A stretch of DNA of 64,000 bases from assembly GCF_003967515.1 (NCBI RefSeq), contig NZ_BIFQ01000001.1, positions 4,278,001 to 4,342,000 on the forward strand, written 5' to 3'. The notes under the pieces were generated by a model. It was not told the DNA's origin and did no database searches. It saw only the letters and a list, made by a program, of their open reading frames with translations. Shown piece after piece: positions 57,455-61,668 of the stretch. The stretch comes from Dictyobacter aurantiacus. GTDB lineage: Bacteria > Chloroflexota > Ktedonobacteria > Ktedonobacterales > Ktedonobacteraceae. The position numbers were made by a program, and so were the translations under genes. Every line of letters begins with the position of its first letter. The first letter of the stretch is position 1.

Positions 57455-59134
57455 TTACTGCTGCCCTTCTAATGTGTTGAAGTAATCATGGACCAGGTCC
57501 TTCTGGTTAGGCGCGACATTGCTGTTGTCGATGGCATCGTGAGCTTTCTGGTTGTACTGTTCAATGACCTTTGAGTAGGGAACATCCGAACCAGGCTGAA
57601 CGACGCCTGTATTATTATCAGTGCTCTGTGTACTTGAGCCCTGGCCGTTCTGGCCCTGCACATACACAGGCTCATCCTTGTGCGCGCCAGAGCCATTGCT
57701 ATTGCCGCCACCGGTTCCTCCCTGTCCCTGGCCCTGTTGACCCTGGCCTTGACCTCCCTGCCCCTGCTGCCCCTGGCCCTGACCTTGTTGGCCCTGCTGC
57801 CCCTGGCCCTGACCTTGCTGTCCTTGTCCTTGCTGGTTTTGCCCCTGTTGACCCTGACCCTGCCCCTGCTGGTTTTGCCCCTGCTGGTTCTGGCCCTGTT
57901 GACCTTGTTGATTCTGCCCCTGATCCTGACCCTGCTGGGCCTGCCCATTTGTATTGTCCGTGGCTGATGCCAGATTGTTGGCGGCGTTCTGCAGACCCTG
58001 CGAGGCCTTGTTGATCGCATTCTCCCCCGCCTGGTCGGAGCTGGTCTGGTTGCTGGCTGATTCCACGGCTTTGGCGGCATCTGAGATCTCGCTGCTGCTG
58101 CCGTCGGCCATCGATTTCGCCATCTGATGCAAAGCCGAGCTTAAAGTGGGATCTTTGTTCGCCTGGTTAGCGGCTTTCTCCAGATCCTGGGCCATCTGCT
58201 TGCGCTGCTCAGGTGATGCCTTGCTGGCCTGGTTGGCGAGATTCTGCAAGGCCTGGGCCAGGCTCTTGCTGTCGTTGGAGTTTAACGCCTGTCCGGTGGC
58301 GCGTGTATTGGCATTGGAGCTATTGTTGAGCGCGTCGGCGGCTGAGGAGCGGGCCTGTGTTCTGTTATTGGACTGTGGGTTGCGCAGCTGATCCAGTCTG
58401 GCCTGCGCCTCTGAAAGCGCCTGCTGGGCGTCGTTGGGATTTTTGGCCTGCTGCAACTTGCTTTCCAGGTCGCGCAGGGTCTGGTCGATCTTCTGTTTCT
58501 CGTCCTTAGAGATGCCTGGTTGCTGGGCGGTGATCTGCCGGAGCTTTTCGATACCGGTCACCTGTTTGGCGATCTGTGCCTGCAAAGCGGCCTGTTGTTT
58601 GAGGACGGCCGTCATGGGATTGGGGACCAGTATCAGCGTGGTTAATAAGAGTAAGAGCACGACCAGAGTGATGGTGGTGGCCCTGCTCAGGCGCAGCGCG
58701 ATACTTCTGGCCGGCGTATAGGCGCGCAGTTGTTTAAGGGCATCGCGCCGCTGCAGTCCGGCCAGAACCGATGTCTGATCACGCAACTCCCACGCGGTTC
58801 CTACACGGTCATGCAGGGACAGGCGCTCATCTACCATGTGGGCCGTACCGGTATTGGTGGGGCGGAACCAGAGTGCCAGGGCGATGCCCAGCACTGGCAT
58901 GGCGATGCCGATTCCCAGCGCCCAATAGGGAGCCGACGCCCAGGGGAGCAGGCGAGAGACCAACAGGACCAGGCCTGCCATAAATAAACCGGTCAGCAGA
59001 CCGCGCACGCCCCAGAAGAGAATCCTTTGGGTCCAGATGCGCCTACGCCAGGGCCGCAGCGCGGCGCCTAGGTTCGCCTGCGTCGGCGTTTCCTCGCCGT
59101 TCGCCCGGGTATGTGACGGTATAAAGGTTGCCAT
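57455..59134 (-). CDS. Membrane protein with long coiled coil and Gln/Gly tract
   Basis: 559 residues. Membrane helices lie near 38-62, 68-90 and 150-172. Residues about 180-370 form long charged coiled coils (Gln/Lys/Asn/Ala-rich), and about 395-490 is an almost pure Gln/Gly tract (QGQ, QQG repeats) followed by NSNGSG and a normal end. The plan resembles DUF4175-type proteins found beside MoxR-VWA genes, but I cannot assign the family with certainty. It is separated from the upstream ABC permease by the IscB element. Confidence 0.75.
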   Translation of the reverse strand: MATFIPSHTRANGEETPTQANLGAALRPWRRRIWTQRILFWGVRGLLTGLFMAGLVLLVSRLLPWASAPYWALGIGIAMPVLGIALALWFRPTNTGTAHMVDERLSLHDRVGTAWELRDQTSVLAGLQRRDALKQLRAYTPARSIALRLSRATTITLVVLLLLLTTLILVPNPMTAVLKQQAALQAQIAKQVTGIEKLRQITAQQPGISKDEKQKIDQTLRDLESKLQQAKNPNDAQQALSEAQARLDQLRNPQSNNRTQARSSAADALNNSSNANTRATGQALNSNDSKSLAQALQNLANQASKASPEQRKQMAQDLEKAANQANKDPTLSSALHQMAKSMADGSSSEISDAAKAVESASNQTSSDQAGENAINKASQGLQNAANNLASATDNTNGQAQQGQDQGQNQQGQQGQNQQGQNQQGQGQGQQGQNQQGQGQQGQGQGQQGQQGQGQGQQGQGGQGQGQQGQGQGGTGGGNSNGSGAHKDEPVYVQGQNGQGSSTQSTDNNTGVVQPGSDVPYSKVIEQYNQKAHDAIDNSNVAPNQKDLVHDYFNTLEGQQ

Positions 59135-59205
59135 ACTACATCCTTTCCCTTACCTCATCAGATGGACGGATGCCTGTTTTCATAAACGCTGCGGCGTGGA
59201 GACCC

Positions 59206-59222
59206 GTCTGCCTTCAGGCGAC
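59206..59222. other. Subterminal hairpin at the right end of the IscB element
   Basis: GTC-T-GCC-TTCA-GGC-GAC folds into a small imperfect hairpin that includes the iscB stop codon (59214-59216). IS200/IS605-type elements carry such subterminal stem-loops for single-strand transposition. The exact cleavage point is not determined. Confidence 0.45.
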
Positions 59223-60527
59223 AGGAGGAAACGCCGCACCCCCTTTCGTGTAACTATAGCCATCGCTTCGATGAATCATATGGCAATAGTGATAGCTAAT
59301 ACCTTGAATAGTTCCTCGCGTGGTTACAATATTGAAATATCCCGAACTCCGTACCGCAACTCGCCCGACATAGGTTCCTCTCTTTTTACCTTTCGTGATA
59401 ATGGCCTTGACGATATCACCCGTCTGAAACCCTTTGACCCTCTTTGCTCCTTTTGCGGAAGTGCGCGGAAAACCATGTTTGTCTGGCAAACACATGTGCC
59501 TATTTCCACGTCCTGTTGCAGTGATCAGAAGAGGTACCACGCCTATTGTGATCAGATGATCAGGTGTCGACGTGCCTACGTTCGCTGCGTCTAACCAGTG
59601 CGTCTTCGGAAGCCCTCTACGTGTCCGATTGCATTTGGTTAATCCACCGCTCCCTACTTCTACAGGCAACCCCGTTGCTTTTAAGCGTTCAAAGAGCGCC
59701 CATCTTGACGCATTGACCGCTGCCGCATCCTTGAGCGGTTTCTTTGCCTGGGCTTCGATACGCTTTAAGACCTCTGGTTTCTTTTTGAGGAAGTCTTGTA
59801 TGTCTTTGGTGCCCTTGGCCTTATTACACGTGTCGCAAGCGAGCGTGAGATTGCTTATCCTATGGGTGCCACCATGAGCGCGGGGATGAATATGCTCTAT
59901 CTGTAACGGAATATCCCTAGCACCACAATACGCGCATTGATGGTTCCACTTGTTGAGCAAGTATTGTCTGACTTCATACCCTGCTAATGTCCCTTGTTGA
60001 TACTCCACGCCTTTGACTTCAGGGTTCTCCATCAATTGCATGTCAAATCGTACTAATTCTTGACTGATCGCCTCAATGGGCGCAGAGCGAGAAAGGCGAC
60101 GAACCCAGGTCAATACGTTGGCAATGCGGCTTTCTAGGGAAGGTGGAAGCCAACCCTGTTTGCGTTTTCTATTCTGCCAGCGTGCTTTTCGATACCGGGT
60201 TTTGCGTTGTCGACGCGAACGCCGGACCGCACGCCTTGCATCAAGAGCTCCTTTGATGGCATGCCCACGATGGAAAAGTTCCGCTGCAAAAACAATCTCA
60301 CCTGATACATCATTGACGATCGCAATGCCAGTGGTTTTACTGCCAGGATCAAGCTTGATCCTGAGCGGTTGTACTTGCGGCTGTTCTATGGCCTTGTTAA
60401 GAATAATCGTAAATGGGTAACGTCGATACACTGATGCTTTGCCTTGCTTGAGCAAGAAACGTGCATACCCCGGATGCACCGGATCTCGTGGTTTGCCAGA
60501 ATGATCTACTATGAAAACATTGCTCAC
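59214..60527 (-). CDS. iscB: IscB RNA-guided HNH/RuvC nuclease
   Basis: 437 residues. The PLMP-type N-terminus (PVHPGYARFLLKQGKASVYR) is followed by RuvC-I with D60 (RIKLDPGSKTTGIAI), the arginine-rich bridge helix (about 98-123), RuvC-II E157 (SQELVRFD), an inserted HNH domain (CAYCGARD, EHIHPRAHGG with H212, N226, CDTC) and RuvC-III with H310/D313 (KTHWLDAANVG). All expected catalytic residues are present. IscB is the ancestor group of Cas9 and cuts double-stranded DNA guided by an omega-RNA. Start is GTG 60527 with AGGAGG five bases upstream. Stop lies in a hairpin. Confidence 0.96.
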   Translation of the reverse strand: MSNVFIVDHSGKPRDPVHPGYARFLLKQGKASVYRRYPFTIILNKAIEQPQVQPLRIKLDPGSKTTGIAIVNDVSGEIVFAAELFHRGHAIKGALDARRAVRRSRRQRKTRYRKARWQNRKRKQGWLPPSLESRIANVLTWVRRLSRSAPIEAISQELVRFDMQLMENPEVKGVEYQQGTLAGYEVRQYLLNKWNHQCAYCGARDIPLQIEHIHPRAHGGTHRISNLTLACDTCNKAKGTKDIQDFLKKKPEVLKRIEAQAKKPLKDAAAVNASRWALFERLKATGLPVEVGSGGLTKCNRTRRGLPKTHWLDAANVGTSTPDHLITIGVVPLLITATGRGNRHMCLPDKHGFPRTSAKGAKRVKGFQTGDIVKAIITKGKKRGTYVGRVAVRSSGYFNIVTTRGTIQGISYHYCHMIHRSDGYSYTKGGAAFPPVA

Positions 60528-60540
60528 ATGAGCCTCCTAT

Positions 60541-60790
60541 TGCTAGGGTGAGGTTGGCCTCGTCAATGTTACTGGAAGGTTTATCGCTGTAAGCACGTCC
60601 TTAACCCTTTACAGATGTTTAACTTACAGCCGTAGAGAGCAGAGCTGGCCTCGCACTCTGCCATACCTAATTTCTTCCATAACGTAGGCTCTATTTCAAG
60701 CCTGAGACTGGTCAGGTTCGGCTTGTCGAAACAAGCCCATCTCCTTTGAGGGGATTGGGTTCCTGACCTATAGATACCTGTATTCTATCT
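60541..60790 (-). ncRNA. Candidate omega-RNA of IscB
   Basis: Minus-strand RNA upstream of iscB. From its 5' end: a guide-like segment (about 60769-60790), then a 7-bp closing stem (60762-60768 with 60710-60716). Inside that stem is a 7-bp hairpin GGCUUGU-UUCG-ACAAGCC (60720-60737) and a small G/C stem (60741-60753). Next is AGGCU/AGCCU (60699-60703 with 60686-60690), then a further structured part to near the ribosome site. The 5' guide, multistem scaffold and position directly before iscB match published IscB omega-RNAs. Ends are estimated. Confidence 0.72.
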
Positions 60791-60792
60791 CA

Positions 60793-61668
60793 TCACGCTG
60801 TCGCCGACGCTTTTGGTTCGCTTCCTGGGGTCTCAATGTTGTTTTTGCGCAGCCGCAACTGTAAACGCTGCCAGGCCTGCGGTTTCACCAACCAGAGACT
60901 CAGGCCAATCAAAATGAGGGCGGCGATAACACTGTAAATACTGTACACCTGCCAGGCGACAAGATTGAACGGGCCAATGCTAATGGTATTGTTAGTATTC
61001 ACCGAGCCATAGTTGTACGTGCTGAACATCGCCACCACCGGATGCCATAGCAGATAGGCTGGCATCCTGCTTGTCCTGACCGGGACGATAATGGCGAAGA
61101 GGACCGGCATGCCCAACCAGAGCAAGAGCAGGACATAGGAGAGCGCGGTCGAGATCGCGGGCCGCGCCACCAGGGTTGAGCAGAAGAGTCCCAGGCTAGC
61201 GGTCAGCACCGCCGTCAGTACAAATATCAGGAGCGCGGCCAGCGCCTGTGTCGGTGAGACGCCCCCGAAGAAAAAGACCAGGCTGAAGATGGGGATGGAG
61301 GCCGCGATCAATATCAGCGCGTTGAGCAGGCCTGCCAGTAGCTTGCCCGTAACGAGCGAGGTCGAGGACAGGCGCGAGCATAGCAAGAGATCGAAGGTCT
61401 GGCGCTCTTTTTCGCCGTTGACGGCCGTCGACGTAAAGGCGGGCGTAATAAAGATAATCAGCAAGAGCTGCACCGTCAGCAGGATGCTGTAGAGCCCCAG
61501 CCCGATGCTGGCCCAGTTGTTGCCATAGACCGCGTTATTGCTGCTGACACTGATGTAGAACCAGCCCAGCAGACCGAGCAGTAAGATATATGAGACGACC
61601 AGCCAGATCGTGCGTTCGCGCCTCATGCGCAGGCGCATCTCTTTGATCAATAGGGCCATGAAGGTCAT
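60793..61668 (-). CDS. ABC-2 type transporter permease
   Basis: 291 residues with six membrane helices, beginning with basic residues (KEMRLRMRRERTIW). The stretch ITPAFTSTAVNGEKERQTFD followed by LLLCSRLSSTSLVTGKLLAG is the typical ABC-2 permease signature. It overlaps the ATPase gene by four bases (61665-61668). Its substrate is unknown. The IscB element begins right after its stop codon. Confidence 0.92.
   Translation of the reverse strand: MTFMALLIKEMRLRMRRERTIWLVVSYILLLGLLGWFYISVSSNNAVYGNNWASIGLGLYSILLTVQLLLIIFITPAFTSTAVNGEKERQTFDLLLCSRLSSTSLVTGKLLAGLLNALILIAASIPIFSLVFFFGGVSPTQALAALLIFVLTAVLTASLGLFCSTLVARPAISTALSYVLLLLWLGMPVLFAIIVPVRTSRMPAYLLWHPVVAMFSTYNYGSVNTNNTISIGPFNLVAWQVYSIYSVIAALILIGLSLWLVKPQAWQRLQLRLRKNNIETPGSEPKASATA

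What the first reader, a model, noticed from the sequence alone, without database searches (positions are those of the whole stretch)
59206..60790. Complete IscB RNA-guided nuclease locus with a foldable omega-RNA
Seen: a 437-residue IscB with all RuvC and HNH catalytic residues and an adjacent upstream RNA region with nested stems. Known: IscB proteins use an omega-RNA encoded directly upstream, with the guide at its 5' end, and Ktedonobacteria carry many copies. Inferred: this locus is active or recently active; tnpA is absent.
Basis: partly seen in the sequence, partly recalled or inferred. Interest (0 to 1): 0.8.

Follow-up and report, generated by a model that had tools for sequence, protein, structure and literature searches.

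The report
IscB transposon inside a host operon
This is a real, intact IscB element (a transposon-borne, RNA-guided DNA cutter of a well-known family) lodged in a bacterial operon; the element itself is ordinary, but comparing about a hundred relatives shows such elements sit, unusually often, right before the start codon of a host gene and facing the same way, which suggests the host gene's own promoter makes the guide RNA.

Summary
A 437-aa IscB (59214-60527, minus) matches NCBIfam guided_IscB at 455 bits, and the region upstream is a full-length HEARO/omega-RNA (Rfam RF02033, 136.5 bits, 60548-60767). Empty orthologous sites in three congeners, and sister copies, put the element at 59184-60767, exactly 5' of ATGA (59183-59180), with no target duplication. 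The guide is host DNA at about 60768-60787. iscB is intact and under purifying selection (dN/dS about 0.12). The genome holds about ten IscB and 13 omega-RNA loci; one pair is identical over 1,584 bp in different flanks, so the family moved recently. No copy carries tnpA; ends resemble those of a TnpA-TnpB element in the same genome. This is a new member of a known kind. What may be new came from the survey: in 25 of 60 Ktedonobacteraceae insertions the right-hand RTG is the start codon of a host gene (14% for nearby RTGR sites, p=5e-7), and in 8 of 18 RefSeq-annotated plasmid loci (13% expected, p=0.001). Downstream genes run the same way in 39 of 45, against 31 of 50 for TnpB elements. The host promoter therefore probably transcribes guide and omega-RNA. 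The window copy fits by orientation, 49 nt before a start codon.

The parts
59184..60767 (-). Whole IscB element (1,584 bp): left end GTCA at 60767-60764, right end ...GCGTTT at 59184
   Evidence: Left end = HEARO model position 1 and GTCA invariant in the aligned copies; right end from the RTGA junction shared by sister copies and from empty sites in congeners
60768..60787 (-). Guide: host DNA just 5' of the omega-RNA (16-20 nt, ...AATACAGGTATCTATAG)
   Evidence: Position by the known IscB layout; flank sequence differs at every copy. The only <=3-mismatch match of guide+ATGA in the own genome is this flank itself, where the TAM position reads GTCA
60548..60767 (-). omega-RNA (HEARO, RF02033), full length 1-211
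   Evidence: cmscan 136.5 bits, E=3e-28; compensatory pairs
60533..60538 (-). AGGAGG ribosome-binding site of iscB, between the omega-RNA 3' end and the GTG start
   Evidence: read from the sequence
59214..60527 (-). iscB, 437 aa, RuvC + HNH nuclease
   Evidence: NF040563 455 bits; PF14239 and PF01844; dN/dS 0.136/1.17 against the nearest copy
59203..59225 (-). Right-end hairpin CCTGTCGCC TGAA GGCAGACGGG
   Evidence: same place and shape as CCCCATGC..TGAA..GCAGGGG in sister copies; read by eye, not folded
59180..59183 (-). ATGA: target-adjacent motif; also present at the empty site in two congeners
   Evidence: L110 and L111 spacers; RTGA at the right end of sister copies
60793..61668 (-). Upstream host gene, ABC-2 permease, same direction, stop 25 nt before the element
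57455..59134 (-). Downstream host gene (559 aa, no Pfam hit at 1e-3), same direction, start 49 nt after the element; its own leader and GGGAAAGGATG are intact

Best explanation
A non-autonomous IS200/IS605-type IscB (OMEGA) element inserted between two co-directional genes of a host operon. IscB binds the omega-RNA whose 5' end is the host sequence left of the element. Loss of the element would rejoin guide-matching DNA to ATGA, making a site that IscB can cut; repair from a copy that still carries the element restores it. The occupied site is spared because the base run after the guide is GTCA, not RTGA. The element moves when a TnpA supplied in trans acts on its ends. Because the guide lies in host DNA, guide and omega-RNA must be transcribed from outside, here by read-through of the host operon. 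Shown: intact iscB and omega-RNA, element ends, ATGA at the empty site, co-direction, purifying selection, recent mobility of sister copies. Inferred: cleavage, homing, trans mobilisation and transcription.
For: Family and RNA models; invariant catalytic residues and dN/dS 0.12; empty sites in three congeners with ATGA kept in two; identical copies in different flanks, each followed by ATGA; guide with correct TAM absent from the own genome; ends resembling those of the TnpA-TnpB element at C2:872294, LE TCAT|ATCGAGCGTAAAACCCC(TTGCTTTAGCTAT)GGGG and RE AAGCCCC(CGGCTTTAGCCGT)GGGGAGTCGTCAC, against IscB reverse complement AAGCCCC(TAGCTTTAGCTAT)GGGGTTCCTGAC; no TnpA in any IscB element; sense orientation in host transcription units
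Against: No expression, cleavage or transposition data. No near-identical twin of this very copy exists. The resemblance of the ends was judged by eye and such hairpins are common in IS605 elements. No sigma-70-like site was found in 59000-61000, which neither supports nor excludes read-through.
Confidence: 0.85

Rival explanations
1. Dead relic: the element can no longer be expressed or cut, and persists by drift.
For: No twin copy; nearest copy 77% identical; many other copies in the family are broken by introns, IS elements or truncation.
Against: Uninterrupted ORF, all motifs, full-length omega-RNA, both ends, dN/dS about 0.12.
Confidence: 0.1
2. Domesticated: the host keeps the IscB locus for another use (defence or regulation) at a fixed site.
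For: Intact, selected protein sequence inside an operon.
Against: Absent from the orthologous operon in three congeners; the guide matches nothing else in the genome; multicopy family with changing flanks.
Confidence: 0.03
3. For the start-codon pattern: it reflects where TnpA can insert (single-stranded DNA near starts, or orientation relative to replication), not selection for guide transcription.
For: IS200/IS605 elements are known to prefer lagging-strand single-stranded DNA (own knowledge); TnpB elements also show a weak 62% co-direction.
Against: IscB elements exceed TnpB elements of the same genus downstream (39:6 against 31:19, Fisher p=0.01) and not upstream; the non-RTG ATAAA clade, where the TAM cannot be a start codon, also runs with the downstream gene.
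Confidence: 0.35

Closest known systems
IscB / OMEGA nucleases (NCBIfam NF040563; KraIscB-1 of Ktedonobacter racemifer, OgeuIscB structures 7xht, 7utn)
   Same: Domain order, catalytic motifs, omega-RNA directly upstream, guide 5', TAM 3' of the target
   Different: TAM inferred from insertion sites is RTGA here, RTGG in the main K. racemifer clade and ATAAA in a third clade of the same family
HEARO RNA (RF02033)
   Same: Full-length model match
   Different: Nothing of note
IS200/IS605 elements (TnpA-TnpB)
   Same: Subterminal hairpins, insertion next to a tetranucleotide (TCAT/ATGA) without duplication
   Different: No tnpA; nuclease gene runs opposite to the TnpA strand, so the guide is transcribed into the element from outside instead of out of it

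Membership tests
IscB | Curated family model above cut-off | tested here: met
   455 bits against 175
IscB | RuvC-I/II/III and HNH catalytic residues | tested here: met
   D60, E157, H212, H310, D313 present; D60 and H212 invariant in 48 relatives; alignment to solved IscBs
IscB | omega-RNA directly upstream | tested here: met
   HEARO 136.5 bits, 60548-60767
IscB | Guide = flanking DNA; rejoined empty site carries guide target plus TAM | tested here: met
   Empty-site comparison, ATGA kept in two congeners
IscB | RNA-guided double-strand cleavage | not testable with these tools
   needs biochemistry
Autonomous IS200/IS605 element | Carries a Y1 TnpA | tested here: not met
   No TnpA in the element or in the other IscB elements read; eight Y1 loci elsewhere in the genome
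IS200/IS605-type ends | Subterminal hairpins and insertion at a short motif without duplication | tested here: met
   hairpins judged by eye

The most novel reading that the evidence does not exclude
IscB elements are promoter traps: in several bacterial phyla they preferentially come to rest, or survive, just 5' of a host start codon and in sense, so that the host gene's promoter and leader transcribe the guide and omega-RNA; the RTGR target-adjacent motif is in effect a start-codon motif, and some lineages carry a Shine-Dalgarno-like GGAG(G) in the right end that could give the gene back a ribosome-binding site.
Probability: 0.55. Interest if true: 0.7.

Novelty: new member of a known kind. 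Interest (0 to 1): 0.45.

Why it matters
The locus adds a clean IscB insertion with a dated empty site. The survey it prompted bears on a real gap: the IscB guide lies outside the element, so how it is transcribed depends on the host. If start-codon and leader insertion is general, it explains guide expression, predicts which copies are active, and makes guide and TAM evolution testable from genome data alone.

Tried and rejected
Covariance search found no other RNA family in the window. Sigma-70 and terminator scan at 59000-61000 gave no promoter-like site and only chance-level terminators. Guide search in 29 family genomes gave one 3-mismatch site shared by three Ktedonobacter genomes, within chance expectation for 22 bases, so no second target is claimed. 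The Y1 TnpA at C1:4048948 was first considered as the helper because its end resembles the IscB right end, but its reading frame stops before the usual catalytic-tyrosine helix; the intact pair at C2:872294 and C2:2366883 is the better candidate. A first omega-RNA alignment was made with wrong strands for some loci and replaced. The original papers (Weinberg 2009, Kapitonov 2015, Altae-Tran 2021, Meers 2023) are not held, so priority for the start-codon pattern could not be checked; the papers that could be searched did not mention it.

Full report
What is there. On the minus strand of the window lies an open reading frame of 437 codons (59214-60527, GTG start) that matches guided_IscB at 455 bits, RRXRR and HNH, and solved IscB structures by sequence. 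D60, E157, H212, H310 and D313 occupy the RuvC and HNH positions; D60, H212 and the zinc-ribbon cysteines do not vary among 48 relatives. Directly upstream, 60548-60767 is a complete HEARO RNA, 136.5 bits. Seventeen related RNAs keep the structure through double-sided changes at 38 of 55 pairs.

Ends and empty site. Aligning the spacers leaves 59184-60767 as the insert, with ATGA (59183-59180) immediately after it and the same ATGA in the empty sites of G004 and G002. The HEARO model starts at 60767, and all aligned copies begin GTCA. Sister copies in the genome end at an equivalent hairpin followed by ATGA or GTGA. There is no target duplication. The guide is therefore host DNA from 60768 leftwards. 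In the own genome guide plus ATGA is not found within three mismatches except at the element's own left flank, where the motif reads GTCA, so the occupied site should be spared.

Activity. The genome has 13 HEARO matches, nine above the gathering score, about ten IscB loci and eight Y1 transposase loci. Two IscB copies (C1:4962965 and C2:1682956) are identical through 1,584 bases in unrelated flanks, each with its own guide and ATGA, and a third, truncated copy shares their left end: this family moved recently. The window copy has no such twin (nearest 77%), but iscB is under purifying selection, dN 0.136 and dS 1.17 against that copy. No TnpA lies in any IscB element read. The intact TnpA-TnpB element at C2:872294, also at C2:2366883, starts at TCAT, the complement of ATGA, and has hairpins very like the IscB ends; mobilisation in trans is the likely route but is not shown.

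The pattern found while following this up. The guide lies outside the element, so something in host DNA must transcribe it. I collected 108 omega-RNA loci from Ktedonobacteraceae and could read the right junction in 60 that end at RTGA or RTGG. In 25 of the 60 the RTG opens a frame of at least 60 codons that is closed upstream in the rejoined empty site, that is, it behaves as a start codon; translations include HIT-like, nitroreductase-like, glutamine-synthetase-like and kinase-like starts (named by eye). The same test on other RTGR sites within 500 nt on the same strand gives 150 of 1059 (Fisher p=5e-7; with a 100-codon requirement 21 of 60 against 93 of 1059), and on non-genic RTGR sites 18%. 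No insertion lies antisense inside a called gene, and no two sites share flanks. A third clade with TAM ATAAA, where the motif cannot be a start codon, also faces the downstream gene in 9 of 10 cases, counting one insertion four bases inside a called frame.

Independent data and control. In 18 plasmid IscB loci from cyanobacteria, Deinococcus, Proteobacteria, Bacillota and Streptomyces, annotated by NCBI, the upstream gene is co-directional in 16 and the downstream gene in 15. In eight the annotated start codon is exactly the RTGR after the element, against a 13% share of starts among non-coding RTGR sites in the same loci (p=0.001). As a control, TnpB elements of the same genus, whose guide is transcribed from inside, have a co-directional downstream gene in 31 of 50, against 39 of 45 for IscB counted the same way (p=0.01), while upstream neighbours do not differ.

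Reading. The simplest account is that IscB elements persist where a host promoter reads into them, and that a start-codon-like TAM places them between a gene's leader and its start. The counts are shown; the cause is inferred. Target choice by TnpA and replication-strand bias remain open (see rivals). Limits: gene calls in Ktedonobacteraceae are from a simple codon-bias caller; junctions were curated by eye; many copies share ancestry although their sites differ; 48 of 108 loci were not used because the junction was unreadable or of another type; the plasmid loci were picked by hand from a list of 40. The window copy is not itself at a start codon: it sits 49 nt before one, in sense, in an operon spacer.

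Verdict. Observation confirmed, interpretation supported, element a new member of a known kind. The start-codon and orientation pattern is the part worth a specialist's look; whether it has been described could not be checked because the founding papers are not held.

Noticed in passing
L025 (own genome C2:49.3-53.3 kb): A HEARO/IscB copy whose HNH region is interrupted by about 2.5 kb holding a reverse-transcriptase-like gene and a group II intron domain (RF00029). L236 (D. vulcani) also holds group II intron parts near its omega-RNA.
   Followed up: partly
L212, L242, L249, L250: In four loci iscB is broken at the same or nearly the same position by related sequence starting CTGCGATTCGTTTG; no Rfam hit at gathering score covers it. 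Possibly an intron or IS with a preferred site in iscB.
   Followed up: no
L152, L176, L181, L183, L186: Sequence with Tn5-like ends (CTGTCTCTTATACACA / CTGACACTTAYACACA) begins exactly at the right-end hairpin of several IscB elements, as if an IS targets that hairpin.
   Followed up: no
L032 (own genome C1:2006977), L237, L238, L217, L219, L223, L230-L233: Short omega-RNA-only elements of about 360-440 bp with both ends, four identical copies in one genome; they look like non-autonomous derivatives.
   Followed up: partly
L256 (Trichormus plasmid) and L266 (Deinococcus plasmid): In two phyla an IscB element sits between parA and parB, exactly at the parB start codon.
   Followed up: no
Right ends in L256-L261, L266, L157, L211, L215, L222: Right ends of several lineages carry GGAG, GAGG or AAGGA a few bases before the following RTG, which could act as a ribosome-binding site for the downstream gene; other lineages, the window's included, lack it.
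   Followed up: partly
L044, L045 (own genome C2:2571694 and C2:1677050): Two 96%-identical divergent IscB-like genes (277 bits) with weak HEARO matches of 63-65 bits, below the gathering score.
   Followed up: no
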